A stretch of 64,000 nucleotides of DNA from Pseudonocardia oceani (GTDB taxonomy: Bacteria; Actinomycetota; Actinomycetes; Mycobacteriales; Pseudonocardiaceae), in the NCBI RefSeq assembly GCF_019263585.2, contig NZ_JADQDF010000001.1, positions 3,534,001-3,598,000 on the forward strand. The letters are read 5' to 3'. The notes under the pieces are model-generated. The model was not told the origin of the DNA, searched no databases, and saw nothing but the letters and a program-made list of their open reading frames with translations. Shown piece by piece: positions 15,290 to 49,084 of this stretch (positions are counted from its first letter, which is position 1; the number at the start of each line of letters is the position of its first letter). The translations under genes were made by a program, and so were the position numbers.

Positions 15290-16330
15290 CTCTATCGCAA
15301 CTTGTCCCCGGGTGGGTAGCTGTCTGCGAGAGATTCGACCTTAGAGTGCGACGTGCAAGTATAGGTCTAGCTGATGCAGAAACGTGCGGTTCGCTTGAAT
15401 CATCTGGTCGCCACTGCTGAGGATCTCTGAGTACAAGGCCGTGGCAAGCTGTCTATCCTCGACCGCTTCTCGAATCCTCGCTTCGCGCCCCCCGGGAAGC
15501 CGTACAATTCCGTAGGCACGTCGAACATCAGAAAGGTAGGAAGGCCGGTCGGGGCTATCGCAGACTCTCCTCACTGCACCGCGGATTCCGTAGTCACTAG
15601 GAAGGAGCACTGAACGTTCTTCCCAAAAGAATGCGCCTACAATGTAGGGCACAATTGTACTTGCCGGATAGTCGTTGGTGGAAATCTTCTCAAGAAGAAG
15701 CGTGCGAAGTTGTTCGGGCTTAACCTTTGAGGCCTAGAACATCGGGAAGTCACTGCCGTCGATTGCTGATAAACACGCAAAAAGAGCGCCGTCCGACACG
15801 GCGTCGAAGTCGATCTCGTCATGAACGGAGTACCACCGGTGAAGGGTACTAGGCTTAACGCGGTGCCCGGCATCCATGCGCCATTGCCGAACCTGATTCG
15901 CAATCTCGTGTGTCGGGCCGCTGAGCGGAAAGTCGGGTAGAAGCGTCTCGTCGATCTTGATCGCCGTTGCCCCCTTCTCGGGCCCAACGATTGTCACCGG
16001 TATCCCTTCACCGCTCGCTGTCAGGACGTATCCAGTTTCTGACCCAGGGCTGGTCGCAACTAGCTGTGTTGCCACCGGCAGAGAAGCTACATGATCGATG
16101 CGGGCGATGAATGCCTTGAGGTTGCGAGTCAGTAGTCGATCCATCGCAGTGTTGACTTCGAGTTGCGTAGCCGGCCCGGTAGCGCTTTGGCGACGGACGT
16201 AGACGACTCCCTGCTGAATGGCCGTCTTGTTTGACCCCGGGTATTGGATCGTCTTGTCGAAAACAATCAAGCGCGAGCTAGGGTAAACCCAGAGAAAGCC
16301 CACGATTTTGTTATAGTACGACAGCTCTGA

Positions 16331-17253: not shown

Positions 17254-17604
17254 TGAGTATGCGGTTCGGACTGCCGAGTTTCCGCTGTACTTAGTAATTC
17301 GGCTGGCAACTTTGGTGGGATCGAACACTTGCAGTAATGACTCTGCCAGTCCGGTCCGTGTTCCATCATCCGAGACGCCGAGCACAAGAACGCCTCCGCC
17401 GGTATTTGCTAGGGCGACAGCATGTTTCACGAAGTCGAGCCACTGACTGTCGGACTGGTCAAATTCTCGCTTGAAGTCGAGGTGGTTATGCTCAACTCGA
17501 GAGCTGTTGCTTCCCAGCTCGCGCAGAAGGCGGCGCATCTCCTCGTCGGGCGCAATGCGGCCATCTAGTACGAAATTGTCGACCAGTTGTGCCGCAGACT
17601 GCAT

Positions 17605-20107: not shown

Positions 20108-20237
20108 CGCTCCTCCTGGTCCGACCCCTCCTCACCATGACGCGCTGACCTGCGGAGATCAACCCTGATGCGGAACTCGCGTCACCCCACGTCATCCCGC
20201 GTCATCTGCCGCCACACCCACCCTCGGCCGCACTCTC
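19169..20237. repeat. 1069-bp direct repeat, left copy
   Basis: This interval is repeated at 21681-22749 in the same orientation; all parts I compared, including every encoded peptide, are identical. It covers most of the XRE/TPR gene and its upstream region. The ISL3 element sits exactly between the two copies. Confidence 0.92.
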
Positions 20238-21680: not shown

Positions 21681-22619
21681 CATTGCGTGGAGCGCGCTCG
21701 TCAGGTCGTCGATTGCTCCGCCGTCGCCGAGCCGGGCGAGACAGTGGCCGCGCCAGCGGGCGAGGTGGCCGGCGCCGAGCATGACGTAGGGCAGCGAGTC
21801 GTCCTGCGCGTCGTTCGGGAGGAGGTCGGCTGCCGCGTCGAGCGCGCGCAGGGCGCCGTCACGCCGTCCGAGAGCTGCGAGCGACTCGCCCTCGGCGGCA
21901 TGCAGCCACGCCAGCAGTACCGACGGAACGGCGGAGCCGGCTTGCGTCCGGGCACGCGCGATGAGGGCGTGCGCGTCGTCCGGCTGGCCCGCGTCGAGCA
22001 GGACGTAGCCCTGCTGTGCTGTGGCGTACGCGAGGCCGGCCGCCTGCCCGCTCTCCCGCGCGGCCGCCGTCGCGATCTCGTGAAGCCGCCACGCCTCGCG
22101 CACGTCGCCGCTGTCGAGCGCTTGCCAGCCGGCGAGAGCGGCGGCCTGGCCGAGCTCGTCGGCTGCCGCCTCCCGATGCGCGCCCGGCAGGGCGTGGCGG
22201 AGCAGGCCGTCGATCTGCTCGACGTGCGCCACGGTCTGCTTGAACGTCAGTGCGCCGCCGAGCCGGCGGTCCAGCAGGCGGATGCTCTGCGTGTGGTCGC
22301 GGAGCAGTGTGACGACGCCAGGATCGAGACGAGTGAAGGCAAGCGGTAGCGCATCGTCGAGGGCCGGCGCCGGTGGCGGAGGTGCCGGCTCGTCCGCGAT
22401 GCCCAGCTCGATGGCGCTGCGGCGGTAGGCCTTGCACAGCAGGTCCCGGTAGAAGGGGCTGACCGCCCCACCCTTGTTCTCCCACATCGCGATGCGGCGC
22501 TTGACGCTCTCGTCCGGCGGCAACGGGTTCTTGGTACCGGCGGCCCGGCGCAGCTCGTGGATCAGCTGCGCCTGCGTCCACTTCCGTTCTGCACGTGCCT
22601 GAGCAAGCCGGTTCGGCAT
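21663..22619 (-). pseudogene. XRE/TPR regulator, 3'-truncated second copy
   Basis: The first 313 or so residues are identical to the complete regulator at 18992-20107. The frame then runs into the ISL3 end and stops after a few foreign residues (ALPR), so about 55 C-terminal residues are lost. The upstream region joins the promoter of the excisionase-like gene at 22843, so this copy occupies the ancestral promoter context. Whether the truncated protein is active is unknown. Confidence 0.85.
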
Positions 22620-22749
22620 CGCTCCTCCTGGTCCGACCCCTCCTCACCATGACGCGCTGACCTGCGGAGATCAACCCTGATGCGGAACTCGCGTCACCCC
22701 ACGTCATCCCGCGTCATCTGCCGCCACACCCACCCTCGGCCGCACTCTC
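21681..22749. repeat. 1069-bp direct repeat, right copy
   Basis: This is the second copy of 19169-20237. It carries the upstream region and the 5' portion of the XRE/TPR gene. The junction with the ISL3 element is at 21680/21681. Confidence 0.92.
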
Positions 22750-22771
22750 GGTATCGCACGAGGTCACAGCG

Positions 22772-32696: not shown

Positions 32697-35600
32697 CTAG
32701 CTCGGCTCAAAGCCGGAGTCGGAGAACCTGAGCACCGTCGCGTTCTCCCGAATCGTGCGCATCTTGGCCTCGTCGAAGCCCCCCGGGGCGTGGGCTGTGA
32801 TCTCGACCCGAACCTCAAGGTGTACGCCCTCGACGGCAGCGAGTTGAGCTACGACCTCCTGGGCGAGCTTTGCGAAGTCACCCGCGTAGCGCTCCGCGTT
32901 GAGCTCTTTCACGCCGTAGTAGCGGGTAAACCGGGTCGGGGTGGGCGCCGGTTGTCCACCGCCGGGCCTCGGTCCGGGTCCGACCGTACCGCCGGGTCCG
33001 GTATCGACGACCGGATCGGCGGGACCGGGTCCGCCGCCGGCCGCGGCCTCGCGCCGCTCTTCGTCTGCGCGCAGTTGCGCCAACGCCCGATCGGGTTGCA
33101 CTAGGAGGACGGAGTCGGTGATCTCGGGAGCGCGCCCGGCGCTGCCGGGAACAACAAGTCCGGAGTACCGTTCCCCGTCCCATCCAGTGGCTAGCGCGAA
33201 ACCGGTGTCCTGCCAGAAGAGCTCGCTGTCGATCACGGCAGCCACCCCATCGGCGAGTACCGAGCGATCACGTAGCCGAGCCAAGTAGGGGTAGGTGGTG
33301 TAGTAGCCCCACAGTTCGCCGAACGTGATGTGTCCGGCCTTGTCCCATGCGGGGCGCAGCGGACCGTCGAGGTCCAGGCGTATCACATTCGCGGCGCGTT
33401 GCAATGATAGGTCGTCGCCTGCGCGCAGCTTGGCCGCCGTGCGGTCGGCGACGTCGTCGGTCGTGCCGTCCGCCTTAACGGGCTTAATCGTTACCGGTTG
33501 GTCCTGCGGCAGCAGTGCCCAGTGGAACGTGGCGGGGAGCCGGTCACGAACGGTCTGGTCGGCGCGGTCCCGGCGGTCCTCGGCCTGGGCGCGCTGCGCG
33601 GCGGTGAGCCCGAGGGCCTTGTCGGCGTTGTCGCGCACGTACTTCCACGCCAGGAACTGGCGGATGGAGTCGTCCAGTTCCTTCCACCGGGTTGCGTCGG
33701 CCGCGAGGAAGACCACCATGTTCTGGTGCACCCGCGCTGCAGAGCCGCGGCGTTGCGCCACGTTGAGCGCCCACACCGCGGCAGGTGACTCGTCTTTCTG
33801 CTTGCGGTCGTAGGTCTCCTTGCACGGCACGATCACCAGCCGCACGTCAGCGGTGTCCGGCACGTCCGCCGAGCTGTCCGGGGTGACGTGCACGGCGGCG
33901 AACCCGCGGGGCGAGTTCTTCTTGACCGGGTCGAGCCTGCGTTTGACCTCGGCCCAGACGTCTTCGGGGTGCAATCGCTCGGCGTGGTCGCGTGCCGTGC
34001 GGGTGGTGTTGGCCTGCGTGTCGTACCAGTAGGCGGACCCGGAGCTGTAGAAGTACGTCGCCCGGTTGGCCAGGTGGTTCAGGGCCGAGTGGAAGTTTCC
34101 GGGCACGTCGCCGGGCAGCGCGGTACCCAGGAACAACCGGGCCCGGTCCAACCCCTTGTGGGCGGTGCTCAGCGTCGGGGTGGCGCCGACGAACACCGTC
34201 CGGGCAAGCCGCTGCGTGGTGTGCCGGGCGCCGAGCAGCGGGTGCTCGTTGTCGACCTGGGCTGGGGCGGAGGTGGGACCGTCCACGTCGGCGTCGACGA
34301 TCGGCTTCCACCGGTCGTCGAGGTATTGGGAGATTTCGGTGAGCACCAGGTCGGTGTCCAGTGGCACGGAACCGGGCATGATCAGCGGGGCGGTGTCGCC
34401 CTCTCGCCAGAGCTGGCCGACCACGGTATTCATCAGCCGAAGCACACCGCGGGTGCGTTGGAAGCGGTCGAGGGTGGACCAGTCTTCATAGAGTCGGTCG
34501 AACAGCTCGGGATGAACTGGGTAGGAGCGACGGATCCGGTCGCCGTACGCGGAGTCGGTCACCGCCTTGGGGAAGTCGCCAGAGTTCTTGCGGTAGAAGG
34601 CGACCATCGCGTCCGCGGTGGCGGCAATCTGGGCGAGCTGAGCGCCGTCGGGGGTGGCGAACAGGCGGCGCCGCACGATCTCGAAGCTCTCGTCCGCGCT
34701 GGCCGCGCGCCACTGGTCGGCGGTGCGACGCACGACGTTCTGCAGCCGGCGTAGCGCCTCGCGCCCGTTCTCCCCACCCACTTCCTCATCACTGGCCCCG
34801 TCGGCGCCGTCGGTGGTGGCGGCATCAGACGAGGCCGGGATGGAGATCACGACGAGCACGCCGGGCACAGCCTTGGCGGTCTCGGTCAGGGACTGGGCGA
34901 AGGTGAACTGGGTGTCGAAACTGCCGCCAGCGAGGTCGTCGCGCCCGTAGAGCCCGCGCGCGTAGGCCACCCACTCGTCGATGAGGATCACGGCGGGGCC
35001 GTAGCGGAGGAACAGCTCGCGGAGCGCCTCACCGGGGTTTGTGGAGGTGCGGTCGGCCTCGGCGACAATCGCGAAGCCGTCGCGGCCGCCGAGCTGCCAG
35101 GCCAGCTCGCCCCAGAGCGTGCGAACGACGGTGCCGTCGGCCTTGGTCTCCAGCCCAGACGGGGCAATCTGGTTGCCCACCAGCGCGACTCGGCGTACGG
35201 ACGCGGGAAGGCTGAGTCCAGCAAGCAGGTCCTGTACCTCTTGTGGATAGTCGACCAGCGGCCGGCCTGATGCCAAATGCCACAGCGACAGCATCGAGTG
35301 GGTCTTGCCGCCGCCGAAGTTGGTCTGGAGGTTAATGACCGGCGACGCGTTCAGGTCTCCGGATAGGCGGCGAGTGGCGCGTTTGATCAGGTCCTTCAAG
35401 CCCGTGGTGAGGAAGGTGCGGCGGAAGAACTCGATAGGGTCGGTGTACTCGGCGTCGCCCTCACCGCGCGCCACCATCGAGAGGTCGGCTGCGAACTCGG
35501 CCGCGTGAAAATTGCCGCTCGCTACGTCGTCGTGGGGGCGCAGCACTTCCCGCCACGGAATCAGCCCGGTCGAGCGCAGGTCGGCCGAGCTGCCGCTGCG

Positions 35601-36077
35601 GACCACCTTCCGGTCTTCCTGCTCGGCGGAGACCCGCCGAAGGTCGATCCGCTGGCGTTTGACCTCCTCAGCTTGGGCGGGGGTGCCCGCGGCCCGTAGT
35701 AACCGCTCAACTGAGTCGAGCGCCCGGTAGGCGTCGTCGGCGGTGAACGAAGCGTTGTGTGCCCAGTTGTTGCGGGTCTCACGAAGCTCACTGGCCAGCG
35801 ACTGCTCGGAGCGAGACAGGTGAGGATTGAATGGGAACCACCCGTCCTTCACCGCACCGGTGACGTTTTCGCTGAGCATTCGCAGGCTGCACTGCGGGTC
35901 GAGCCGGCTGTAGACCCCGGGACGGCCACCGCGCTGGGCGTCCTTAGCGGCCAGCACCAGCGTCCAGTCCGACCCCTCGGCGAGGTCGGGGGCCAGTACG
36001 CGGGTGATGAACTCGTCTAGCCCGACGGCCAGCTGCTCGAACGCCTGGCCCACCCGCTCACGGTTGCTCGGTGCCAT
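32697..36077 (-). CDS. HEPN-DUF499 AAA ATPase of a defence operon
   Basis: The 1126-residue protein opens with a Swt1-like HEPN domain (about residues 1-130). The ETRNNWAH segment supplies an R-x4-H motif typical of HEPN ribonucleases. The DUF499/COG1483 ATPase core follows, with NFGGGKTHSML (Walker A, about 253-263) and VILIDEWVAYARGLY (Walker B). The tail is Pro/Gly-rich, then a globular end. DUF499 ATPases occur with DUF1156 methylases and helicases in anti-phage and restriction-like loci. The ATG at 36077 lies 4 bp after the GmrSD stop, making it the last gene of a four-gene operon. A toxic RNase activity triggered by infection is possible and is inference. Confidence 0.85.
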   Translation of the reverse strand: MAPSNRERVGQAFEQLAVGLDEFITRVLAPDLAEGSDWTLVLAAKDAQRGGRPGVYSRLDPQCSLRMLSENVTGAVKDGWFPFNPHLSRSEQSLASELRETRNNWAHNASFTADDAYRALDSVERLLRAAGTPAQAEEVKRQRIDLRRVSAEQEDRKVVRSGSSADLRSTGLIPWREVLRPHDDVASGNFHAAEFAADLSMVARGEGDAEYTDPIEFFRRTFLTTGLKDLIKRATRRLSGDLNASPVINLQTNFGGGKTHSMLSLWHLASGRPLVDYPQEVQDLLAGLSLPASVRRVALVGNQIAPSGLETKADGTVVRTLWGELAWQLGGRDGFAIVAEADRTSTNPGEALRELFLRYGPAVILIDEWVAYARGLYGRDDLAGGSFDTQFTFAQSLTETAKAVPGVLVVISIPASSDAATTDGADGASDEEVGGENGREALRRLQNVVRRTADQWRAASADESFEIVRRRLFATPDGAQLAQIAATADAMVAFYRKNSGDFPKAVTDSAYGDRIRRSYPVHPELFDRLYEDWSTLDRFQRTRGVLRLMNTVVGQLWREGDTAPLIMPGSVPLDTDLVLTEISQYLDDRWKPIVDADVDGPTSAPAQVDNEHPLLGARHTTQRLARTVFVGATPTLSTAHKGLDRARLFLGTALPGDVPGNFHSALNHLANRATYFYSSGSAYWYDTQANTTRTARDHAERLHPEDVWAEVKRRLDPVKKNSPRGFAAVHVTPDSSADVPDTADVRLVIVPCKETYDRKQKDESPAAVWALNVAQRRGSAARVHQNMVVFLAADATRWKELDDSIRQFLAWKYVRDNADKALGLTAAQRAQAEDRRDRADQTVRDRLPATFHWALLPQDQPVTIKPVKADGTTDDVADRTAAKLRAGDDLSLQRAANVIRLDLDGPLRPAWDKAGHITFGELWGYYTTYPYLARLRDRSVLADGVAAVIDSELFWQDTGFALATGWDGERYSGLVVPGSAGRAPEITDSVLLVQPDRALAQLRADEERREAAAGGGPGPADPVVDTGPGGTVGPGPRPGGGQPAPTPTRFTRYYGVKELNAERYAGDFAKLAQEVVAQLAAVEGVHLEVRVEITAHAPGGFDEAKMRTIRENATVLRFSDSGFEPS

Positions 36078-36081
36078 GGGT

Positions 36082-37983
36082 TCAGGCCTCCTCGTCGGTC
36101 GGGTTCTCGTCGGCGCCGTCCTCGACGTCGTCGGGTTCGTCGGCGAACTGGTCGGGGGTCTCGAAGCCGCCAACGAGCTCGTCAGCCTCGACGTCGCGCT
36201 GCGCCGGTTTGCCCATCGCGGCCTCGACCAGTTCGAGGAGTGCCCGGCGACGTCGTAGGAAGTAGGTCTCGAAATCAGCCTCGCGCAGCGTCGACGGGTC
36301 GATGAGGTGAGCGGCGATCACCGCGTCCAACTCATCGGAGGTCAGCCCGGCGGTTGCTTCCAGCTTCGACATGTACGCGGCCGGTGACGCGCCCCCGACC
36401 ATCTGGTTCGTCTTGCGCGCCAGCGGGGTCTTGTTGACGATGCTCTCGCGCATCCAGCTCTCGACCTCGTTCGCGATGCACCACTTCCGCGGGAAGACGT
36501 GGTGGATGTCGACCCGGAGCGCGATGTACTGGTTGTGGTCAAAGGTCTTCTGGAACCGCCAGTCCTTGCAGCCGCGGGCCATCAGCAGCGCGTGGATCCC
36601 CTTAAAGGCGGCGGACTGCCGTGAGCGCAGAGTCAGCAGGCGGGACTCGGTGAAGCTCGCTCCTGCGACGGTGCTTGGCGTCGCCCGGTCTCGTTCTCCG
36701 GCCGCGGCCCCCACGGCGGCCAGAGCCCAGGAGGGGACCTGGTCCAGGTCACGAGCGAAGCGCGTCTCGGTTGCGCCGCCGTACTGCTCGCCGAGGACGC
36801 CGCTCCAGTACCAGCGGCGCAGCCGGGCGCGAACCGCGTACACGTCGGCGTCCTCACCCAGCACGACACGCATCGCGGCGAGCGGGATGAGCTGGGTCTG
36901 GTACGGGATGTCGTCCTGACGGTGGATGTGTTCGTCGTGCAGGAACTGCGCGACCCACACCAGCGCCCGGCGCACGGGCTCGGCCCAGCGCAGGTAGTCG
37001 ACGAGATCGAGCTTGAGGATGTCCTCCTTGCGCGCGTACGTGGCGCCGGGCCCGTGGCTGGTGGCCAGCAGCGTCACGGCCTGCAGGAACGCGGTGCTAT
37101 CGAACTTCTTCAGCACCGGGTGCGCGTCGATCACGGCCTGGGTGCGGGCCCAGTCGTCGTTGAGCCGGAAATCGACGCCGTGCTCGGCGAAGTAGGCGCC
37201 GTCGCCCGCGAAGATCGACGTCAGCAACTCGAAGACGTTCAGCGGCAGCCCGCCGGTGTTTACTTTCTCGAAGACCGTTGCGACGGCCGCCTTCGTGGTG
37301 GTCTTGTCCAGCTCGATCGCGGGGATCTCGTAGCTCTGCAGCGGGGTGACCACCTCAGCCTGGAAGCGCTGGATCAGCGCGGTCCGCTCGGCCAGGTCGC
37401 CAGTGGCGGAGGGGAAAGTCCACAGCCAGTCGAGCAGGTTCGGCGAGTCGTAGACGAGCCGGAACGGGAAGAGGCCGTGCTCGCGCTCCCGCTCCGGGGT
37501 GGACACGTCGAGGATGATGTCGCGACCGAAGTTGGTGCGCTCGATGCCGTCGCCGGGCAGGATCCGGATGGCGTCGTCCAGGCGCGACGGGTCGATCATC
37601 GCGCGCTCGATGTCGATGTAGAAGCGGCGCCGCACCTGCTTCTTGCGTACGTCCTCGGTGTCGACCACACCGTCGCCGGTGAGCGACTGGACCAGCGACG
37701 TCAGACGCTGCTGCCCGTCGAGGAGCAGGTGCTCGGGAGACACCGTCGCCGTGCCGTCGGGCGTGCCTTCGAGCGGCTTCGGCTTGAAGCGGACTTGGTC
37801 GCTGCCGGTCTGCAACAGCATGATGACGCCGAGTGGGTGGCCCAGGGTGATGGTTGCCAGCAGGGCGCGGATGCGCTCCTCGTCCCACTTGTAGCCGCGC
37901 TGGAAGTCCGGCAGCTGGATGCGGCCGTTGTTGGCCCGCTCCAGCAGCGTCGAGAGCTTGTGCTGCGGCGTCAGGAAGCCCAT
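36082..37983 (-). CDS. GmrSD-type DUF262/DUF1524 restriction endonuclease
   Basis: The 633-residue protein has an N-terminal DUF262 (GmrS-like) domain with QLPDFQRGYKWDEERIRALL and the nucleotide-binding DGQQR motif at residues 89-93. Its C-terminal DUF1524 (GmrD-like) HNH domain contains VDIHHVFPRKW near residue 490. Fused GmrSD enzymes are modification-dependent (type IV) nucleases that cut phage DNA with modified cytosines, driven by NTP. Start and stop lie 4 bp from the neighbouring genes, so co-expression with the methyltransferase and DUF499 ATPase is certain in practice. It may serve as the cutting component of the cassette. Confidence 0.88.
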   Translation of the reverse strand: MGFLTPQHKLSTLLERANNGRIQLPDFQRGYKWDEERIRALLATITLGHPLGVIMLLQTGSDQVRFKPKPLEGTPDGTATVSPEHLLLDGQQRLTSLVQSLTGDGVVDTEDVRKKQVRRRFYIDIERAMIDPSRLDDAIRILPGDGIERTNFGRDIILDVSTPEREREHGLFPFRLVYDSPNLLDWLWTFPSATGDLAERTALIQRFQAEVVTPLQSYEIPAIELDKTTTKAAVATVFEKVNTGGLPLNVFELLTSIFAGDGAYFAEHGVDFRLNDDWARTQAVIDAHPVLKKFDSTAFLQAVTLLATSHGPGATYARKEDILKLDLVDYLRWAEPVRRALVWVAQFLHDEHIHRQDDIPYQTQLIPLAAMRVVLGEDADVYAVRARLRRWYWSGVLGEQYGGATETRFARDLDQVPSWALAAVGAAAGERDRATPSTVAGASFTESRLLTLRSRQSAAFKGIHALLMARGCKDWRFQKTFDHNQYIALRVDIHHVFPRKWCIANEVESWMRESIVNKTPLARKTNQMVGGASPAAYMSKLEATAGLTSDELDAVIAAHLIDPSTLREADFETYFLRRRRALLELVEAAMGKPAQRDVEADELVGGFETPDQFADEPDDVEDGADENPTDEEA

Positions 37984-37987
37984 GTGT

Positions 37988-40807
37988 TCAGTCCCCCGTG
38001 TAGTCGAAGGTGCCCTGCTCGGCCGACGGACCCACGCCGGCCACGATGTCGTTCCAAGCGGTGCCCAGAGCGTTGAACTCGACGGCGACCTTCGTGCGCT
38101 TGGCATCCCCGGCCAATGCGAACAATAGGAACGCCAGCTCCTTGCAGAGATCGCGGTCGATCGACTCGGGCACCCGCGTGAGCAGCGCGGACGCGGCGAC
38201 CACCCCGTTCTCGGTAAGGGCGCGGGCCAGGTGCATTACCACCTCCCACGCACTGATCGACCGGTCGGCCGCCGGATTCCACTCCGGGTCCAGGCTCGAT
38301 GGGGCGAGCAACGTCACCTTGCCGCGGGTGCCGCGGAGGCTGAGGATCCCGGCCCGGTCGAGGTGCTCCAGCGACGCGTTGCGGGCGCGCGCGAGGTTGT
38401 CTGCGTCGCCGAAGTCTCCGGAGTCGAAGCCGTGCTGGCGGAACCAGGCGAGCGCGAACCGGGTGTCCGGGTCGAAGTCCCCCTCCTGCTCGGAGAGCAC
38501 CTCGTCCAATACCTCATTGATGAGCGACAGCGCCGCCCGCACTCCCATCGGTGTGCCGTCGTCGCTCAGGACCGCTGAGTACCGACTGAACACAGCCATC
38601 CCAGGCCCGATGGCGGCCTGGGGGAGGTCGACCGGCGCGATCGCTCCCTGCTGCAACTCGCGGAGTGCGGTCGGTAGTTCGGCTTTGAGGGCTGCTACGA
38701 ATCCGCGTCGCGCCGTGCGCGCCGCTGAATCGGGCCGGGGACGCAACGCGAGCACGATAGAGGAGGCGAGTGCGTTGGTACCCAGACTAATCATCCGCCC
38801 CCCCCTTTCGCTCCGCATCGGCCACGTTGCAGTGATTGTCCAGCCAGATCGGACCATCCCGTCCAAAAGAGTTTCCCAGCCAGTCGAGGCTACGCCTTCG
38901 CTGGTTGTTTCGGCCTGCTTGAAAGCGTAGTAGACGGTAATCGGGTAGGCGTCGAGTGCAGTCTCGCGTGCTCGCCGGAAAACACTGTTGAATCCCGATT
39001 CGAAGAACTGACGGGCTCCGGCTTTGCCATCGTGGCGGTAAGCATTCGCCACCAACTCTTCTGCTTTTGGTACAAGCATAGAAGAGAAAATGTCCGGATG
39101 GTTCTTACGCAGAGTTTTTCGGAGCCATACGTAGAAGAAGTCGGAAAGATCCGAGTAGACGATGTTGTCGTAGTATGGGGGGTCAGTTGAAATTAGGGCG
39201 CCGGCTTGGTCATGCGCGATTGCGTTACGCTGCGTGGCTGTTCCTGGAACTGAAGCGGGTATCGCTTCGAGCGCTCGCGCGACTGCCGCAGTCATTATAG
39301 AGATCGTGCCGGACGATTCCCCGAAGGGGTTGCCCTCGGCGTAGTCCCATGCCATAGGGATCGCCTGCCGCGAGAAGACGTTCCGAAGAATCTCGTTCTT
39401 CGGATTGCTGGCCCATGTCGTAATCGCAGACTGGTAGTCAGCTAATCTACTTACAACAAGACCGAGGTAGGTCGCAATGGCGGCGCCGTAGGCCTGAGCC
39501 GCCCCTGCTTCGTTCGACGTACGAGTCGCAAGAAAGTCCTTCACCGCCAGGTCTTGTGCTTCGCCGACGAGATCGCTCAGACTGGTGAGTAGCAGGAGCT
39601 GGCGGTCAGTGAAATAGTCTGCAAATGTGAAGAACCCGTATCGACGACCCTGTGCATTTCCCCCAAACGTGCCCCGGGCATCGGCAAGCAGTGTGTCTGT
39701 TCCTGTGCGAATCGCACTGGCGTCGACAGATGTGGCGGCCGCAAGATGCTCTGGCGTTGGGGGCGCGTAGATTCTGCGCCTATTTCCTTCGGCCACGATT
39801 GCAATCAGATCGGCTGCATGGCCTCCAGGATGATCTAGTTGCAAGTGTACATCTTTCGCGGAGATCGACTTTGCGCAGTTTAGGCAGATTGCTCCAGCTG
39901 AACCGGAGACGGTTCCATCATCTGTGCCCTCCGGTGCTGTAGCTGGATCGTGACCAATCGAGTAGGATATTCGCATTCCGCTGGGGTGGCTTGGGTCGGA
40001 GACGACGTTGGGGATAACATATGCCTCTTTCCCCTTCTTTCGTCCCAGCCACCATGATCTGGCAAGAGGAATAGAGATTCGACATGCCGGATTGGAGCAG
40101 GTAATAGTACGCGACCATATCCATGCCACCACCTGGGCTGTGGACCCATCAGAAAGGGTCACTCTGGGATAGTGGCCTCCAATGCGCTCTTCGGCCTGCG
40201 TGCGCATCCATTTCCCGTAGTAGCGGATGTCCTCGGCGAGTCCTGTTGCGCGTGGCCAGGTCCCGCTGCGAATGTTTGACGCGTCGGGGTTCACTGGCTG
40301 TTGACGCGCGAAATGCGAAGGGATGTCAATTAGGGCGCGATTGATGAGCACGGCTACAGGGTTAAGGTCGCTGGCGTGGGCTTCGAGGCCGAGACGCTGG
40401 GCCTCCAGCGGAATTGTGCCGCCGCCAGCGAAAGGGTCGAGAATGGGCGGGGGGTTGCCGCCCGTGGAGTCAAGGATCTCCTGGTGGGCCTGCCGGAATA
40501 GGTCCTCGTCGCCCGAGTTTTCCCACACGGCCATCCGCTCGATCAGGTCGTGCAGGCGCTTGCGCTCGGTCACCACGTCGGCCTCAGTCGGGAAGCGATC
40601 GGGGTGGGAAGAGGGGTCGTCAACGAGCTGCGCGAACAGCACAGCGCGGGCGGCCGCGAGGGGTCGGCGAGCCCACCACAAGTGCAGGGTGGACGGATGG
40701 CCGTGGCGAATGGACTTCTCGCGGGCAGACTCGCGGTTGATGGCCTCCAGCGGCAGCGCCACCTCGATGAGCTTGCGCTTCTGCGCGGGTGATGGTGCAT
40801 CAGTCAC
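37988..40807 (-). CDS. DUF1156 adenine-specific DNA methyltransferase (COG1743)
   Basis: The 939-residue protein starts with a DUF1156 domain (LIEVALPLEAINRESAREKS, then LHLWWARRPLAAARAVLF). The SAM-binding motif is DPFAGGGTIPLEAQRLGLEA near residue 125, a zinc-ribbon region has paired cysteines (CSNPAC, then CLNC), and the catalytic DPPY motif (STDPPYYDNIVY) lies near residue 540. It probably marks host DNA as self. GTG at 40807 overlaps the helicase stop by 4 bp. The part from about 38800 to 40300 has visibly lower GC and different codon use than the two ends, as if the central, probably sequence-recognising, segment had been exchanged. Confidence 0.88.
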   Translation of the reverse strand: MTDAPSPAQKRKLIEVALPLEAINRESAREKSIRHGHPSTLHLWWARRPLAAARAVLFAQLVDDPSSHPDRFPTEADVVTERKRLHDLIERMAVWENSGDEDLFRQAHQEILDSTGGNPPPILDPFAGGGTIPLEAQRLGLEAHASDLNPVAVLINRALIDIPSHFARQQPVNPDASNIRSGTWPRATGLAEDIRYYGKWMRTQAEERIGGHYPRVTLSDGSTAQVVAWIWSRTITCSNPACRISIPLARSWWLGRKKGKEAYVIPNVVSDPSHPSGMRISYSIGHDPATAPEGTDDGTVSGSAGAICLNCAKSISAKDVHLQLDHPGGHAADLIAIVAEGNRRRIYAPPTPEHLAAATSVDASAIRTGTDTLLADARGTFGGNAQGRRYGFFTFADYFTDRQLLLLTSLSDLVGEAQDLAVKDFLATRTSNEAGAAQAYGAAIATYLGLVVSRLADYQSAITTWASNPKNEILRNVFSRQAIPMAWDYAEGNPFGESSGTISIMTAAVARALEAIPASVPGTATQRNAIAHDQAGALISTDPPYYDNIVYSDLSDFFYVWLRKTLRKNHPDIFSSMLVPKAEELVANAYRHDGKAGARQFFESGFNSVFRRARETALDAYPITVYYAFKQAETTSEGVASTGWETLLDGMVRSGWTITATWPMRSERGGRMISLGTNALASSIVLALRPRPDSAARTARRGFVAALKAELPTALRELQQGAIAPVDLPQAAIGPGMAVFSRYSAVLSDDGTPMGVRAALSLINEVLDEVLSEQEGDFDPDTRFALAWFRQHGFDSGDFGDADNLARARNASLEHLDRAGILSLRGTRGKVTLLAPSSLDPEWNPAADRSISAWEVVMHLARALTENGVVAASALLTRVPESIDRDLCKELAFLLFALAGDAKRTKVAVEFNALGTAWNDIVAGVGPSAEQGTFDYTGD

Positions 40808-43800
40808 TGCGGGGGTCCCCCTTGGTTCCACATGGCGTTCCAGTCCCCACGGATGCCGGTAGCGGTGAAGCCGCCCAGGTCCGTGCTGCGGAACGGGTTG
40901 GTGAGGTAGCGCAGCTCGTCGTGCTCGGGCCCGTCCGGGCTGACCGAGACGAGGGCGAGGCGGTGGTTGTCTCCGGCGTTCTTGCCGAACAGCACTTCGT
41001 TGTAAGTCACGAAGAAGTCATCGGCGCCGGCCTCCCGGCCTTTGACCTCAATGAACACGGTCGGGGCCCCGGCCGTGGTGGTCCGGACGTCGTAGCCGGG
41101 GTTGTTGTGCGGCATCTCCTCCGGGTCACGGCCCAGCGCAACCTCCGCGGCCAGGACGGCGTCGACCGCACGTCGTTCGCTGACCGTGGTATCCACCGGG
41201 TGTTGTCCGGTCGAACCCGTCACCAGGCCAGCCGGGATGATCAGCGCCGCCCCGACCACGGTAGGGGCCCTGGCGGCGAGCTGGGCCTCGGCCGAGAGTG
41301 CCGCCGTGCGGGCGTCGAGGCGGGCCTCCAGCTCCCGGGCTCGGGACTCCATCCGGTCGGGGCTCTGCCGGGACTTCCCGCCCTTGCCTGCAGCGATCTC
41401 GTCACGGAGCCGAGCGGCCTCGCTGTGGTGCCAATTAACCTGCTGCAACAGGCGCTGCCGCACCGCCCCGGTGGTCTTCTTCAGCAACGGCAGCATCCGG
41501 GCGCGCACGTCGTCGAGGTGCTCGGGCTGTTGGTGGGTGACCGCCCACGTACCGGCGAGCGCCTCCACACCGCCGTCGAGCCACGGCTGGGCCAGCACCT
41601 TCTTAGCTGCCGAGCGGGCATGTTCAGGCAGCGGTTCGGTGTCGAGGTACGGGGCCGGTCCGCCTGTAGAAGCCTCACCGTCGGGGGTAAGGGTGACGAA
41701 CACGAACCGCTTGCTCACCACCCGGCCCGTGCCGTCGACGACCTCGCCTGTCAACGCCACGACTAGGCGCGGGACGGTGCCTTGGTCGTGCGGGTCGAAG
41801 AGCAGGGCACCCCGTTCCAGCGCCGTGCGGTGGGCCTCGGCGGTGGCGTCGAGGACGGTGTCCATCAGCGGGTGTCCGGGCGCCAGCAGCTCCGCCCGCT
41901 TGCCGAGTCCCTCGACGCGGCCGGGCTCGAAGGTCACCCGCTCGTACCGGGTGGTGAGCGGGGTGCGGGCGCCGGGTCGCTGCCGGGCGCGCAGGGTCGC
42001 GGGCACGTTGCTGATCTCGTGTCGGCCTACCTCGCGCCGCGACATCCTGCCACCGAGGCGGGCAAACGCATCGCGGAAGAACAGCTCCACGTAGTGCGGC
42101 TGCAGGCGCCGAGCCGCGGCCTCGTCCATCTCCTGACGCAGTCGCGCCAGCTCGTGCGGATCGAGCGCCTCCTGGGCCAAGGCCCGTTCGATGAGCAACT
42201 CAGTGAGCCCGTTGGACACCTGCGCATCGACGACCTGGAACATCTCCTTTCGCCGCTTTGGGTCGTCTCCATAGCGGACGGCGTCCATAAGCAGGTCGCG
42301 CAACGAGGTCTCGGTGAAGGCGTCACCGAGCACGTCGAACAGGCGACCGCCGTAGGCCTTGCGCTGTTCCTCCATCTTCGTCAGCAGCCGGGCGAACACC
42401 TGGCCCTCACGGGTGTCCTCGGCGACCAGATTCCACAACCTGCAGACGTTCTCCTGACCGATGCGGTGGATGCGTCCAAAGCGCTGCTCCAGCCGGTTCG
42501 GGTTCCACGGCAGATCGTAGTTGATCATCAGGTGGGCGGCCTGGAGGTTCATGCCCTCACCGGCTGCGTCAGTGGCCACCAGCACGGTGCGGGCCGGGTC
42601 GTGGGTGAACTCCTCCCGCGCCCGGCGGCGGTCATCGCGCTTAGTCCCGCCATGGATGACGAGCACGGCATCATCGCGGCCGAGCACGTTACGGATCTGG
42701 TCGACCAGGTAGTACAGCGTGTCCTTGTGCTCGGTGAACACGATCAACTTTCGGGGAGCGCCGTCCGGGTCTCGGAGCAAGGCCTCGTCGAGCAGCAGCC
42801 TGCGCAACTCAGCCCACTTGCGGTCCTGTCCGGAGTCGCGGACCTGCGTCGCGAGGGTGACGAGATCGTCCAGCTGCGAGATCTCGTAGGCGAGTTCTAC
42901 GGCCGACTGCGCGGCGGTCGCCGCGTCGACGATGTTCTCCTCCAACGCCTCGGCCTGCTCGGCGTCGAGCTCGTCGGACTCGAAGTCGTCGATGTCGTTG
43001 GCACGAAGGGTGTAGTCGAGGCGCTCCTCGACGACTGAGGCGTGGGTAGCGTCGAGCATCTCCTGTCGCTTCGCCTTCAGCCGGTCACGTCGGCGCTCCA
43101 GCGAGCGGAGGATCGCGTGGGTGCTGGACGCCAGACGGCGCTGCAGCACGGTGAGGGCGAAACCGACCGTGCGGGTGCGACCCGCGTCCAACGACTCCGC
43201 ACGGTTCATCTCCTCCCGCACGTACTGCGTGACCCGCTCATAGAGGTTCTTCTCGCCGCCCGACAGCTCGTAGGGCACGGTCTCGGCGATCCGCTCGGGG
43301 AACAGCGGCCGGCCTTCGAAGGTCAGCAGGTCCTCCTTGACCATGCGCCGCATCAGCCCGGTGGTGTCGGTGGAGTGCACGCCGTCGCGGAAGCGACCCT
43401 CGAAGCGGTCTGGGTCGAGCAAGGCCAGGAACAGCTGGTAGTTCTCTTCGCTGCCGGCGTGAGGCGTGGCGGTCATTAGCAGCAGGTGCCGTGCAACGGT
43501 GCCCAGCTCCTGGCCGAGTTCGTACCGGCGGGTGGTGCGCAGCTCGCCGGTCCACCATCGGGCCGACATGCGGTGCGCCTCGTCGACGATCACAAGGTCC
43601 CATTCGCTGGTGGCCAGGTGCGCCCGCAGATCCTCCGAGCGAGCGAGTTGATCCATTCGGGCGATGAGCAGCGGGTGGCGGGTGAAGGGGTTCCCGTCCG
43701 GGGCGGTGGCGGCCATGTCGGGGGAGAGAATCTCGGCATCGATGCCGAACTTGGCGGCCAGCTCGTCCTGCCACTGCTCGACCAAGCTGCCCGGGGCCAC

Positions 43801-44295
43801 GATCAGCATCCGAGCGAGGTCGCCGCGGAGGATCAGTTCCTTCGCGTACAGGCCAGCCATGATGGTCTTGCCGGCGCCCGGATCATCAGCGAGCAGGAAG
43901 CGCAGGGGCGTCTTGGGAAGCAGCTCGCCGTAGACCGCCCGGATCTGGTGCGGCAGTGGACGCACGTTTGACGACGACACCGCAAGCATCGGATCGTGCA
44001 GCCCCGCCATGCGGATCCGTAGTGCCTCGGCAGCGAGCCGGAACGTCGCCCCGTCAGCGTCGAAGCTCCAACGGGAACCGGGTTGCTCCACCGTCAGGCG
44101 CGCTAGGTCGGCCGGGTAGAGCAACTGCGTGTCCGTGGCGCCTGCGCTGTCGCGGAAGACCAGCTCGAGAGTATCGACGCCGTGCGGGATGTTCGCCAGG
44201 ACAGAGACGGGGGAGGGCCGTAGCCCGTGCACCGTGACTCCAGCCGTCAGGTCGCTCGCGCGCACAGGGCGTGATGAAGGTGTCGCTCGTGCCAC
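40804..44295 (-). CDS. SNF2/RapA-type helicase with C-terminal DUF3883 domain
   Basis: The 1163-residue protein has the SF2 motifs ADDPGAGKT (Walker A, residues 136-144), VIVDEAHRM (DEAH, 238-241), LMTATPHAGSEENY, VATDAAGEGMNLQ and RFGRIHRIGQ (motif VI). The last 150 residues contain VFIEVKGREAG and FFVTYNEVLFGKN, a DUF3883 domain with a PD-(D/E)xK-like E-x-K core. DNA translocases of this type scan or remodel foreign DNA in DISARM-like and related systems. It is the promoter-proximal gene of the cassette and starts with GTG. The stop overlaps the methyltransferase start by 4 bp. Confidence 0.88.
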   Translation of the reverse strand: MARATPSSRPVRASDLTAGVTVHGLRPSPVSVLANIPHGVDTLELVFRDSAGATDTQLLYPADLARLTVEQPGSRWSFDADGATFRLAAEALRIRMAGLHDPMLAVSSSNVRPLPHQIRAVYGELLPKTPLRFLLADDPGAGKTIMAGLYAKELILRGDLARMLIVAPGSLVEQWQDELAAKFGIDAEILSPDMAATAPDGNPFTRHPLLIARMDQLARSEDLRAHLATSEWDLVIVDEAHRMSARWWTGELRTTRRYELGQELGTVARHLLLMTATPHAGSEENYQLFLALLDPDRFEGRFRDGVHSTDTTGLMRRMVKEDLLTFEGRPLFPERIAETVPYELSGGEKNLYERVTQYVREEMNRAESLDAGRTRTVGFALTVLQRRLASSTHAILRSLERRRDRLKAKRQEMLDATHASVVEERLDYTLRANDIDDFESDELDAEQAEALEENIVDAATAAQSAVELAYEISQLDDLVTLATQVRDSGQDRKWAELRRLLLDEALLRDPDGAPRKLIVFTEHKDTLYYLVDQIRNVLGRDDAVLVIHGGTKRDDRRRAREEFTHDPARTVLVATDAAGEGMNLQAAHLMINYDLPWNPNRLEQRFGRIHRIGQENVCRLWNLVAEDTREGQVFARLLTKMEEQRKAYGGRLFDVLGDAFTETSLRDLLMDAVRYGDDPKRRKEMFQVVDAQVSNGLTELLIERALAQEALDPHELARLRQEMDEAAARRLQPHYVELFFRDAFARLGGRMSRREVGRHEISNVPATLRARQRPGARTPLTTRYERVTFEPGRVEGLGKRAELLAPGHPLMDTVLDATAEAHRTALERGALLFDPHDQGTVPRLVVALTGEVVDGTGRVVSKRFVFVTLTPDGEASTGGPAPYLDTEPLPEHARSAAKKVLAQPWLDGGVEALAGTWAVTHQQPEHLDDVRARMLPLLKKTTGAVRQRLLQQVNWHHSEAARLRDEIAAGKGGKSRQSPDRMESRARELEARLDARTAALSAEAQLAARAPTVVGAALIIPAGLVTGSTGQHPVDTTVSERRAVDAVLAAEVALGRDPEEMPHNNPGYDVRTTTAGAPTVFIEVKGREAGADDFFVTYNEVLFGKNAGDNHRLALVSVSPDGPEHDELRYLTNPFRSTDLGGFTATGIRGDWNAMWNQGGPPQ

Positions 44296-44643: not shown

Positions 44644-44823
44644 CTAAGCTTTCGTGAGCAACTGAACCGCTTCCGCGATCGCAAGGAGCGTCGTCGCGGT
44701 CGTGTTGTCCCACGCGTCCAGTCCTGCGCGGGCTATGTCCGGGTCGTCCGAATAACCCCAGCCGCCCGAACCCGTCTTCTCCAGAAAGACGAGGCGCACG
44801 CCACGGCCGATCACCAGAGCTGA
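44644..44823 (-). pseudogene. C-terminal fragment of an unknown gene cut by IS5 copy B
   Basis: About 59 codons remain (VRLVFLEKTGSGGWGYSDDP, then ending AIAEAVQLLTKA). The frame enters directly from the IS end, so the start and N-terminus are gone. The N-terminal part does not appear on the other side of the IS, which points to an IS-adjacent deletion. I do not recognise the protein. Confidence 0.6.
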
Positions 44824-45746
44824 GACCGTGTTTGAGAAGGGTCGGCGTGTCTGCGCCGCGCGGGCCGCGCTCTGGTCCATCGTGGACGGGTGGCTCGGCG
44901 TCAGCGGCGGTATCCCTCGGACACCAGCGATGAGCAGTGGGCGTTGATCGAACCGCTGTTGCCCGAGGCCGGGGCGGGTGGGCGTCCGGAGAAGCACCCG
45001 CGCCGGGACGTGGTCGACGCGATCCTCTACGTCGTGCGGGCGGGGTGCGCTTGGCGGGCTCTACCAGCGGACTTCCCGCCCTGGCAGACCGTCTACTGGT
45101 ATTTCAACCGGTGGGAACAGCAGAAGGTCACCGAGAAGATCCTCCCGGTCGTGCGCCGTCAGCTACGTGCCGACGAGGGGCGGGACCCGGAACCGAGCGC
45201 GGGGATCATCGACTCGCAGTCGGTGAAGGGTGCCGACACCGTCGGGCAGGACTCGCGCGGCTTCGACGCAGGGAAGAAGATCAACGGCCGGAAGCGGTTC
45301 ATCGTGACCGACACCCTGGGCCTGCTGTTGACCACGGTGGTGTGCTCGGCGTCGGTGCAGGACCGCGACGGGGCGAAGTCGATCCTGCTCGACCTGTACC
45401 TGCGCACCAGGGTGCGGTTCGTCTACGCCGACGCCGGGTTCGCCGGACGCCTGCTGGAGTGGGCGAACACGATCCTGCGCACCAGCGTCGAGGTCGTGCG
45501 CAAACCGCCTGAGCAGCGCGGGTTCGCCGTCCTCCCGCGCCGCTGGGTGGTCGAGCGGACACTGGCCTGGCTGACCGCACACCGCCGTCTGGCCCGCGAC
45601 TACGAACGCCACCCCGCCGTCTCCGAGGCCATGATCCGCTGGGCCGCGATCAACACCATCACCCGCCGCATCGCCCGCGGCAAGCCGGCCGCCCGCCAAC
45701 AGAAGTACGTCTTCACACCCGCGACTTGATCTTCTCAAACACGCTC
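44824..45746 (+). mobile_element. IS5-family insertion sequence, copy B (923 bp)
   Basis: The element has the same ends and length as copy A at 16331-17253 but the opposite orientation. Its flanks are TGA on the left and TTA on the right. They do not match, so it lacks a target duplication and has probably suffered an adjacent deletion or rearrangement. Its right end lies 15 bp from the start of the Shedu gene. Confidence 0.9.
44890..45729 (+). CDS. IS5-family transposase (copy B)
   Basis: The 279-residue protein is identical to the transposase of copy A, including IIDSQSVKG, VYADAGFAG and WVVERTLAWL. It appears intact and could mobilise either copy. Confidence 0.93.
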   Translation: MARRQRRYPSDTSDEQWALIEPLLPEAGAGGRPEKHPRRDVVDAILYVVRAGCAWRALPADFPPWQTVYWYFNRWEQQKVTEKILPVVRRQLRADEGRDPEPSAGIIDSQSVKGADTVGQDSRGFDAGKKINGRKRFIVTDTLGLLLTTVVCSASVQDRDGAKSILLDLYLRTRVRFVYADAGFAGRLLEWANTILRTSVEVVRKPPEQRGFAVLPRRWVVERTLAWLTAHRRLARDYERHPAVSEAMIRWAAINTITRRIARGKPAARQQKYVFTPAT

Positions 45747-46437
45747 TTATGGAGGGGCTTCGTGCCTCTCGAGCCTCAGAACGAAGTGACGTGGGCCCGG
45801 AATCGCTCGCCGGACCGCACATACTTCCACCGGACCTTTGAACTGGATATCCGGGCATCGCAGGACTTCGGTCACCCTGCTCGATTCATCGTCAAGGTCT
45901 TCGATGAGCCCGATGACACTGCGGGCGTGCTGTCAGAGGGGCTCGAGTACTTGGAGGAAGTCGTGCACACCACGCCCGGAGGGCGCAAGCAGGTCAAGAT
46001 CCAGATCGCTCGGGAAGCCGGGCTCGTTCGAGAGATTCAGATTCAGCGGGTGCCCACCAACGGCGACGCAACGAAGCTTGAGACTCTGCTGACCCTCGGG
46101 CGTGACGCGGCCGGTCGACTCATCGACCTGGTGCAGACCCTCCAGTACATCCCGCTTGAAGGGGGAGAGCACACCGTCCGCCTCGACGACCAGACGATCC
46201 GGGACTTCTTCGCCGATCCGGAGGGTATGGCCCGGGCGTACCAACGTCGGCCGGAGACCTTTCGCAACCTCATCGAGAACGACCCGTCGGCTGAGGACCT
46301 CGTGGCAATCGCCCATCGCAGAGAGCCCGGGTTCCGCAGCTGATGTCGGTGCTGGACACGGAATCTGGGGGTTGACCTGCGAGAACGCCGAAGGCCGCCC
46401 GGACGGGCGTGTGTCCAGGCGGTGAGGTTCGTGCTGG

Positions 46438-48198
<1,761 letters not shown>

Positions 48199-49084
48199 GT
48201 GTCCAGACGTTACATGAGTTCCAGCAGCTCAACAGTTCGAACACCGATCGAACGTGTGTCCAGTATTTTCGCCGCTTCCGGACCTGCTCCCGCTCGCTGA
48301 CCTGGGAGAATACCGCGGCGTGTGTCCAGATCCGCCCATCAGCTGCGGAACGCGGGGAGAGGTCGTCGCTCGATTTCGCAGGCTTCTTGATGACCCCGAC
48401 TACTTCGAGGCCGAGCGCCTAGAGCTCATCGCCCGCACCAGCAGACAGACGGCCGGCAAGGAGGCTGTGTGGCAGGACCTCCTTGAAAGCGAGCCGTGGA
48501 TCCTCGGCGTTTCCCTGACGGGTCAGCTCCTGACCTCTTGGGATCAGCGGAAACTTGAGCAAGTCGTGGCCGGCTATTCTGTCGCTGGCAGAGCGAAGCG
48601 AACCGACGCGCTCATGCACACAAACGGCCAGATCCGTTCGCTCGTCTTCGCCGAAATCAAGCACCACGAGACACCGCTCCTCAGCAACGAGCAGTACAAG
48701 TCCGGCGCGGAGTACCGCCCCGGGTGCTGGCCGCCGTCGACGGAGCTCGCGGGCGGCGTGACCCAGCTCCAGCAGACTGTCCTCCTTGCCCGAGAAGACA
48801 TCGGCGAGGTGCTCAACAAGCTCGATGATGACGGCGCCGAGACCGGCGAAGCCGCCTACGTGGTCCGCCCGAGGTCGTATCTGATTGCCGGGCACCTCCG
48901 GAAGCTGAGAGGTGCCAACGGTGTTCACAGGGACAAGTACCGCTCGTTTGAGCTATACCGCCGCAACCTCTACGAGCCAGACGTCATCACATTCGACGAA
49001 CTCCTTGCTCGGGCCGAGTGGCACGTCCAGGCAGCACAGCCGCACGACGTGGAGGAGTAGGCACGACCGCCGAGCACCGGTTGG

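What the first reader, a model, noticed from the sequence alone, without database searches (positions are those of the whole stretch)
32697..44295. Intact four-gene defence cassette: SNF2-DUF3883 helicase, DUF1156 methyltransferase, GmrSD nuclease, HEPN-DUF499 ATPase
Four large genes are read as one operon with 4-bp overlaps or 4-bp gaps. Seen: SF2 motifs with a DUF3883 E-x-K core, a DPPY methylase with zinc ribbon, DGQQR and HHVFP motifs of a fused GmrSD, and an R-x4-H HEPN motif plus Walker A in the DUF499 protein. Known: COG1483 (DUF499) and COG1743 (DUF1156) co-occur with helicases in restriction-like, DISARM-related loci, and GmrSD cuts modified phage DNA. Inference: this is one system in which the methylase marks self, the helicase scans, and GmrSD or the HEPN domain is the effector. 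A type IV-like nuclease welded into a self-methylating operon is unusual, because it should attack modified rather than unmodified DNA.
Basis: partly seen in the sequence, partly recalled or inferred. Interest (0 to 1): 0.85.

Follow-up and report, generated by a model that had tools for sequence, protein, structure and literature searches.

The report
Hma phage-defence operon with embedded GmrSD
Four bacterial genes form a known three-gene anti-virus system with a fourth, add-on enzyme gene slotted in that probably destroys viruses whose chemically altered DNA would escape the first three.

Summary
The four genes are real, intact and tightly packed (4-nt overlap, then two 4-nt gaps). Three are a textbook Hma system (helicase-nuclease, methylase, ATPase; also called Type-1 BREX-related): PADLOC 1363, 983 and 853 bits. 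The fourth is a GmrSD-type (type IV) enzyme between hmaB and hmaC. It recurs: 7 of 32 close Hma loci found through HmaB (window included) have it in that slot. It is neither fixed nor one lineage: grouping the Hma-linked copies is rejected in reduced GmrSD and HmaC trees. The window's GmrSD is nearest a Micromonospora gene without Hma nearby; its HmaC is nearest Rhodococcus plasmid copies without GmrSD. In four close pairs (two clusters) HmaB is 51-74% identical while GmrSD stays 93-96%, so GmrSD is not matched to the methylase's target. GmrSD inside Hma, working independently, is already reported (Payne 2024 preprint, seen only as described in PMC11411939). Verdict: new member of a known kind, a complementary second layer. 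Small additions: repeated recruitment into one slot, independence from methylase specificity, recurrent loss of hmaB.

The parts
40804..44295 (-). hmaA: SNF2-family helicase with C-terminal NOV_C (DUF3883) PD-(D/E)xK-like nuclease domain; predicted primary effector
   Evidence: PADLOC HmaA 1363 bits; Pfam SNF2-rel_dom, Helicase_C, NOV_C; DEAH and GYD..IEVK motifs
41041..41097 (-). catalytic core of NOV_C (GYD...IEVK, D..ExK)
   Evidence: read from sequence; the pattern is found in 61 of 66 tabulated loci; the misses are L007 and L054 (no HmaA in the DNA held), L026 and L069 (HmaA not or hardly covered) and L052
37988..40807 (-). hmaB: DUF1156 DNA methyltransferase with internal zinc-ribbon/target-recognition insert; predicted N6-adenine, gives the system its target sequence
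   Evidence: PADLOC HmaB 983 bits; DUF1156; motif I DPFAGGG 40438-40418 and DPPY 39184-39173; GC 0.62 against 0.68 for its neighbours
36082..37983 (-). gmrSD: fused type IV (modification-dependent) restriction enzyme, accessory gene in the hmaB-hmaC slot
   Evidence: GmrSD_N 101 bits; DGQQR 37719-37705, HHVFP 36504-36490; nearest solved structure by sequence profile BrxU 7p9k, E 1.1e-5, N-terminal part only
32697..36077 (-). hmaC: Swt1-type HEPN domain fused to DUF499 AAA+ ATPase
   Evidence: PADLOC HmaC 853 bits; HEPN_Swt1 100 bits, DUF499 75 bits; Walker A GGGKTH and Walker B ILIDE
35757..35774 (-). HEPN R-x4-H motif (RNNWAH)
   Evidence: read from sequence

Best explanation
This is an Hma (Type-1 BREX-related) restriction-like system with a type IV enzyme embedded in its operon, giving two complementary layers of phage defence. 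Layer one: HmaB marks the host's own copies of its target sequence (predicted N6-adenine methylation) and gives the system its specificity; HmaC (ATPase) and HmaA (helicase-nuclease) attack DNA carrying the unmarked sequence, with HEPN as a possible last-resort RNase. Layer two: GmrSD on its own cuts DNA with modified cytosines, which phages use to hide from layer one. The methylase is probably needed for attack as well as for marking, as in BREX and type I R-M. SHOWN here: gene content, motifs, recurrence, repeated gain or loss in one slot, HmaB divergence with GmrSD little changed. INFERRED: all activities, and the independence of the two layers in this organism.
For: Core identity. GmrSD lies in the same slot and strand in 14 of 59 close Hma loci tabulated; 7 of those 14 came from a GmrSD-led search, and the less biased figure is 7 of 32, window included. 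Distances between alignment edges are 7-75 nt on the hmaB side in 14 of 14 and 4-106 nt on the hmaC side in 12 of 14. It comes and goes: at least 10 and 9 changes of state in the full and reduced GmrSD trees (8 and 7 forced by starred branches), 9 and 9 in the HmaC trees; one clade rejected in the reduced sets (AU p 6e-6 for 36 of 102 GmrSD rows, 8e-14 for 34 of 46 HmaC rows). It also lives apart: 26 of the 30 class genomes with GmrSD have no HmaB at E<=1e-40, and its nearest relative found (71%) is a Micromonospora gene with no Hma hit in its 6-kb flanks. GmrSD is not tuned to HmaB: in 4 of 4 GmrSD-bearing close pairs (five loci, two clusters) GmrSD is 93-96% identical and HmaB 51-74%. Precedents with tests: BrxU between brxC and pglX works without pglX, cuts 5mC/5hmC/glc-5hmC DNA, and N6mA-bearing hosts are unaffected (PMC8565348, passages); TgvAB inside a type I R-M operon; Hma-embedded GmrSD-like proteins said to work independently (PMC11411939, passages).
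Against: No function was tested here. The window GmrSD matches the Hma-embedded profile HEC-05 weakly (50 bits, N-terminal part), so its substrate cannot be read across with confidence, and its C-terminal nuclease half is supported only by motif and relatives. Tight packing in one slot could also mean a physical link to the Hma complex. The methylated base is inferred: PMC8565338 called HmaB a predicted m5C enzyme (passage), PMC12839542 an N6-adenine enzyme (passages). If HmaB made m5C, a GmrSD in the same cell would risk attacking the host. One close pair (L143/L144) has HmaB 100% identical with HmaA 97% and HmaC 96%, so HmaB is not the faster-changing gene in every pair.
Confidence: 0.74

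Rival explanations
1. GmrSD is an integral effector of the Hma complex: HmaB/HmaC recognise unmarked foreign DNA and hand it to GmrSD, and the hmaB-hmaC junction is a port that allows co-translational assembly.
For: Same slot and strand in 14 of 59 loci, short spacers on both sides in 12 of 14; other gene types also enter the slot: a NERD-domain gene in L008, SLFN_AlbA/HATPase in L052, a HEC-07-like gene in L056, a canonical DUF262/DUF1524 gene in L149.
Against: 25 of the 32 HmaB-found close loci lack it, and the DUF3883 core is seen in 61 of 66 tabulated loci; 87 of 102 GmrSD tree rows have no HmaB or HmaC hit within 3 kb in the DNA held (some contigs end sooner); Hma-embedded GmrSD-like proteins are reported to act independently (PMC11411939, passages).
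Confidence: 0.12
2. GmrSD is a passenger: a mobile defence gene that landed at a permissive junction of a frequently transferred operon, with no functional tie.
For: Repeated gain or loss; mobile surroundings: MobF relaxase, coupling protein and several transposases; GmrSD in L052 carries an early stop.
Against: Same orientation and close packing in 14 of 14 close loci that have it; DGQQR and other positions invariant in the aligned copies; close pairs keep GmrSD at 93-96%.
Confidence: 0.08
3. GmrSD reads the mark made by HmaB-type methylases and so polices self/non-self directly, as one system.
For: Co-location only.
Against: In L005/L020 HmaB is 51% identical (39% around residues 250-550) while GmrSD is 95% identical; 26 of 30 class genomes with GmrSD have no HmaB at E<=1e-40; a GmrSD cutting HmaB-marked DNA would cut the host.
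Confidence: 0.04

Closest known systems
Hma system (Payne 2021, PMC8565338) / Type-1 DUF499-centred BREX-related system (PMC12839542)
   Same: helicase with C-terminal PD-(D/E)xK nuclease, DUF1156 methylase, DUF499 ATPase with N-terminal HEPN (1370 of 2446 taxa in PMC12839542)
   Different: extra gmrSD gene between hmaB and hmaC
GmrSD-like genes embedded in Hma clusters (HEC-05, HEC-06; Payne 2024 preprint, known here only through PMC11411939 passages)
   Same: GmrSD-like gene inside an Hma operon, reported to work independently
   Different: the window protein is only a weak match to HEC-05 (50 bits) and a marginal one to HEC-06 (17 bits): probably a separate branch of the family
BREX with BrxU on pEFER (PMC8565348)
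   Same: GmrSD-family type IV enzyme inserted between the genes of the ATPase (brxC) and the methylase (pglX)
   Different: BREX is a six-gene system with PglZ; here the order is methylase, GmrSD, ATPase and the nuclease is on the helicase
TgvAB inside a type I R-M operon (PMC11411939)
   Same: GmrSD-related type IV genes nested in a self-marking restriction operon
   Different: two-protein system, type I R-M host operon

Membership tests
Hma / Type-1 BREX-related system | HmaA, HmaB and HmaC together in one operon | tested here: met
   1363, 983 and 853 bits against PADLOC models; same strand, one gene (gmrSD) between B and C
Hma / Type-1 BREX-related system | C-terminal nuclease domain on the helicase | tested here: met
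   NOV_C 57.6 bits over the 22.1 cut-off, D..ExK core present; activity not tested
Hma / Type-1 BREX-related system | anti-phage activity and site-specific DNA methylation | not testable with these tools
   needs phage challenge and methylome sequencing
GmrSD family (type IV restriction) | DUF262/GmrS domain with DGQQR | tested here: met
   GmrSD_N 101 bits (cut-off 33.2), DGQQR invariant in the 39 rows of A2
GmrSD family (type IV restriction) | DUF1524/GmrD HNH-type domain | tested here: inconclusive
GmrSD family (type IV restriction) | cleavage of DNA with modified cytosine | not testable with these tools
   biochemistry needed
BREX | PglZ in the operon | tested here: not met
   none of the four operon genes is matched as PglZ; the rest of the window was not scanned for it
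DISARM | its own gene set (DrmA/DrmB core; recalled) | tested here: not met
   none of the four operon genes is best matched by a Drm model: HmaA scores 1363 bits with the HmaA model against 393 with DrmD
Hma-embedded candidate HEC-05/HEC-06 | match to the HEC profiles along the protein | tested here: inconclusive
   HEC-05 50 bits over residues 39-166 of the 674-aa ORF only, HEC-06 17 bits; position inside an Hma operon agrees

The most novel reading that the evidence does not exclude
The hmaB-hmaC junction is a dedicated plug-in port of Hma systems: lineages repeatedly and independently insert interchangeable effectors there (at least two GmrSD subfamilies, a NERD nuclease, a Schlafen-type gene), co-translated with the methylase and ATPase and thereby coupled to the complex, while the methylase's target-recognition region is exchanged on its own clock. 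HmaB would then be the specificity subunit needed for attack, so its loss disarms the system harmlessly, which would explain why, in this sample, transposons are found in hmaB and not in hmaA or hmaC.
Probability: 0.15. Interest if true: 0.6.

Novelty: new member of a known kind. Interest (0 to 1): 0.3.

Why it matters
It shows, by comparison rather than by one example, that a type IV enzyme has come and gone many times in the same slot of a self-marking defence operon, and that it does not follow the methylase's changing specificity. The natural hmaB knock-outs make a question on BREX-like systems testable: is the methylase only an antidote, or also part of the weapon?

Tried and rejected
Considered and rejected: (1) a new four-gene system: PADLOC and the literature identify the core as Hma, and GmrSD-in-Hma is in print. 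(2) DISARM or BREX membership: see membership rows. (3) GmrSD as a single-origin, co-inherited member: rejected by AU tests on reduced sets. (4) GmrSD tuned to HmaB: contradicted by close pairs. (6) Promoter/terminator scan: promoter-like count at chance level (1 found, 0.9 expected), terminator-like 9 against 5.9 (sd 2.5); not used.

Limits and results against my reading. 7 of the 14 GmrSD-bearing loci came from a GmrSD-led search. The plasmid loci were picked through HmaC, 20 opened of 100 matching records, all from the best 30 listed; 0 of 20 carried this GmrSD and 1 of 20 another DUF262 gene in the slot. Of 42 loci opened from the HmaB searches (every listed HmaB genome), 31 plus the window were counted; set aside were L019 and L057 (no HmaC in the DNA held), L046-L049, L058 and L060 (HmaC under 40%), and L059, L061 and L062 (more distant). 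L110 (GmrSD between A and B) was dropped from the 59-locus counts for the same reason. Duplicates L066, L094, L101 and L118 were removed. The tests of one clade used 36 of 102 GmrSD rows (14 of 15 linked; L110 left out) and 34 of 46 HmaC rows, chosen by me after the full trees had shown long branches; trees are of the quick kind, still with long rows flagged, and the counts cannot tell gain from loss. The labels are only weakly clustered in the reduced sets (45 and 63 of 500 shuffles as low). The close-pair test has 11 pairs; the twelfth, L143/L144, was compared only and goes the other way (HmaB 100%, HmaA 97%, HmaC 96%). The excess of transposons in hmaB (5 of 58 against 0 of 45 for hmaA and 0 of 58 for hmaC) is not significant by Fisher's test for B against A (p 0.066); the length-weighted chance that all five fall in hmaB is 0.003; HmaC-led sampling favours intact hmaC. 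Two of 45 hmaA were flagged and not counted as broken: L010 (in-frame extra 360 nt) and L159 (stop near the end of the match). The HEPN pattern is narrow and missed many loci, so it is not used. The 2024 preprint on embedded defences and the supplements of PMC12839542 were not available, so how much of the slot pattern is already in print cannot be said; searches on this.
Full report
WHAT IS THERE. Four ORFs on the minus strand fill 32697-44295. With starts re-read from the sequence they are hmaA 44295-40804, hmaB 40807-37988 (4-nt overlap), gmrSD 37983-36082 (4-nt gap) and hmaC 36077-32697 (4-nt gap). Pfam gives SNF2-rel_dom/Helicase_C/NOV_C, DUF1156, GmrSD_N, and HEPN_Swt1 plus DUF499. PADLOC names three of them HmaA (1363 bits), HmaB (983 and 963 bits for two models) and HmaC (853 bits; that profile starts after the HEPN domain); the fourth hits several DUF262-type defence models weakly, best PDC-M55C at 71 bits and HEC-05 at 50 bits.

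WHAT THE CORE IS. Hma was named in PMC8565338 (passages: 1,638 instances, 26 phyla). PMC12839542 (passages) treats the same systems as DUF499-centred, Type-1 BREX-related, in 2446 taxa, 1370 with the HEPN fusion and 1921 with a C-terminal nuclease on the helicase, and predicts that nuclease to be the effector with HEPN as backup. It also says that HNH and other nucleases can lie near or within such loci. PMC3710099 (passages) had already noted HEPN-DUF499 in an operon with a SNF2-DUF3883 helicase. The window matches in these features.

IS GMRSD A FIXED MEMBER? HmaB was found in 28 of 394 genomes of the class, 6 of 249 of the family and 17 of 397 of the order (overlapping sets, different E limits). 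Of the 42 loci opened from these searches, 31 had HmaB and a close HmaC (at least 40% identity); with the window 32, of which 7 have GmrSD between them. Two of the nine (L094, L101) are loci already in hand (L026, L052; equal contig lengths). Over the 59 close loci tabulated, 14 carry GmrSD in the slot, all on the operon's strand. Distances between alignment edges are 7-75 nt to hmaB, and 4-106 nt to hmaC save in L052 and L056, where a further gene lies between GmrSD and hmaC. In the 45 loci without this GmrSD the B-C distance is 7-202 nt in 39 and 728-1769 nt in 6. So it is a recurrent, minority accessory.

ONE RECRUITMENT OR MANY? In a tree of 102 GmrSD rows, 15 Hma-linked, the label needs at least 10 changes (8 forced by starred branches); in a tree of 46 HmaC rows, 14 with GmrSD, at least 9. 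Reduced sets with fewer long rows (36 and 34 rows) give 9 and 9, and holding the linked rows as one clade is rejected (AU p 6e-6 and 8e-14). These counts cannot tell gains from losses. The window's GmrSD pairs with a Micromonospora gene (71%) that has no Hma hit in its 6-kb flanks, while its HmaC is closest to Rhodococcus plasmid copies (61-66%), of which the seven opened (L143-L147, L151, L163) have no GmrSD between B and C. The two genes have different histories.

DOES GMRSD FOLLOW THE METHYLASE? In the 11 close pairs compared with interrupted pieces kept apart, HmaB is less conserved than HmaA and HmaC, and lower around residues 250-550, the target-recognition insert, than elsewhere. A twelfth pair, L143/L144, seen only, is an exception: HmaB 100%, HmaA 97%, HmaC 96%. 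In the four pairs with GmrSD (five loci, two clusters), GmrSD is 93-96% identical and HmaB 51-74%; in L005/L020 HmaA, GmrSD and HmaC are 95-96% and HmaB 51%. In L097/L133 GmrSD (96%) is even closer than HmaA (88%) and HmaC (89%). GmrSD therefore does not appear to depend on which sequence HmaB marks. The window's hmaB is also the low-GC gene of the operon (0.62; 0.56 in part of the insert).

IS HMAB ONLY AN ANTIDOTE? hmaB is interrupted or frame-shifted in 9 of 58 loci with near-complete hmaB: long insertions in L020, L021, L151, L152 and L159 (transposase genes identified in or beside them), frameshifts in L016, L045 and L145, an early stop in L017. No such insertion was seen in hmaA (0 of 45) or hmaC (0 of 58; one C-terminal frameshift, L008). 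In these nine loci the DEAH and D..ExK patterns of hmaA and the Walker A of hmaC remain, and the genomes of L020 and L021 show no second HmaB at E<=1e-40. This favours a methylase that is also needed for attack, as in BREX, where pglX-deleted constructs could be propagated and lost the BREX layer while BrxU still worked (PMC8565348, passages). It is suggestive, not proven: the B-against-A Fisher test gives p 0.066, and sampling was not neutral.

HOW IT PROBABLY WORKS. Layer one is the Hma core; layer two is GmrSD against cytosine-modified DNA. The strongest support is by analogy: brxU sits between brxC and pglX, gives protection without pglX, cuts 5mC, 5hmC and glc-5hmC DNA, and its authors infer that it does not recognise N6mA; TgvAB is nested in a type I R-M operon; and GmrSD-like genes embedded in Hma were reported by Payne and colleagues, acting independently (PMC11411939, passages; the preprint itself was not seen; PMC12255303 also cites it for embedding, passages). 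By sequence the GmrSD profile reaches BrxU 7p9k at E 1.1e-5 over the N-terminal part only.

NOVELTY. New member of a known kind. What I did not find in the passages read is the repeated gain or loss in one slot, the contrast between changing HmaB and little-changed GmrSD, and the recurrent loss of hmaB; the supplements of PMC12839542 and the 2024 preprint could hold parts of this. The slot also takes other genes: NERD in L008, a canonical DUF262/DUF1524 gene in L149, a SLFN_AlbA/HATPase gene in L052, a HEC-07-like gene in L056.

CONTEXT. The cassette lies next to a MobF (TrwC) relaxase and a type IV coupling protein, between two nearly identical inverted copies of an IS5-type element, with a Shedu gene beyond, and HmaC relatives are found in 100 plasmid records: it looks like mobile defence cargo.

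Noticed in passing
window 16330-17257 and 44820-45747: Two inverted copies (928 bp, 99.9% identical) of an IS5-type element enclose the relaxase, the coupling protein and the Hma-GmrSD cassette.
   Followed up: partly
window 19167-20239 and 21679-22751: An exact 1073-bp direct repeat on both sides of an ISL3-type transposase gene (20243-21568); looks like a recent duplication or insertion event, or an assembly effect.
   Followed up: no
window 48254-49060: A Shedu (SduA) defence gene, 298 bits to a PADLOC SduA model over its C-terminal part, separated from the cassette by transposase genes.
   Followed up: partly
L042, L043, L044, L045, L006, L009, L003, L013: A small DUF1643-type gene family lies just after hmaA in these 8 Hma loci (a further, more distant copy lies downstream in L010); none of them carries GmrSD.
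   Followed up: partly
L011, L052, L056, L057: A Schlafen AlbA_2 plus HATPase_c_4 gene (in L011 a partial match) sits between hmaA and hmaB in L011, L056 and L057, but between GmrSD and hmaC in L052.
   Followed up: partly
L020, L021, L151, L152, L159: hmaB interrupted at different sites, with different transposase genes, while hmaA and hmaC keep their motifs.
   Followed up: partly
L007 and L054: HmaB and HmaC side by side with no HmaA hit in the 17 kb held.
   Followed up: no
L052 GmrSD: An in-frame stop at codon 23 of the embedded GmrSD in a Nakamurella metagenome contig.
   Followed up: no
L008 11112-12179: A SMODS-type nucleotidyltransferase gene inside the hmaA-hmaB interval.
   Followed up: no
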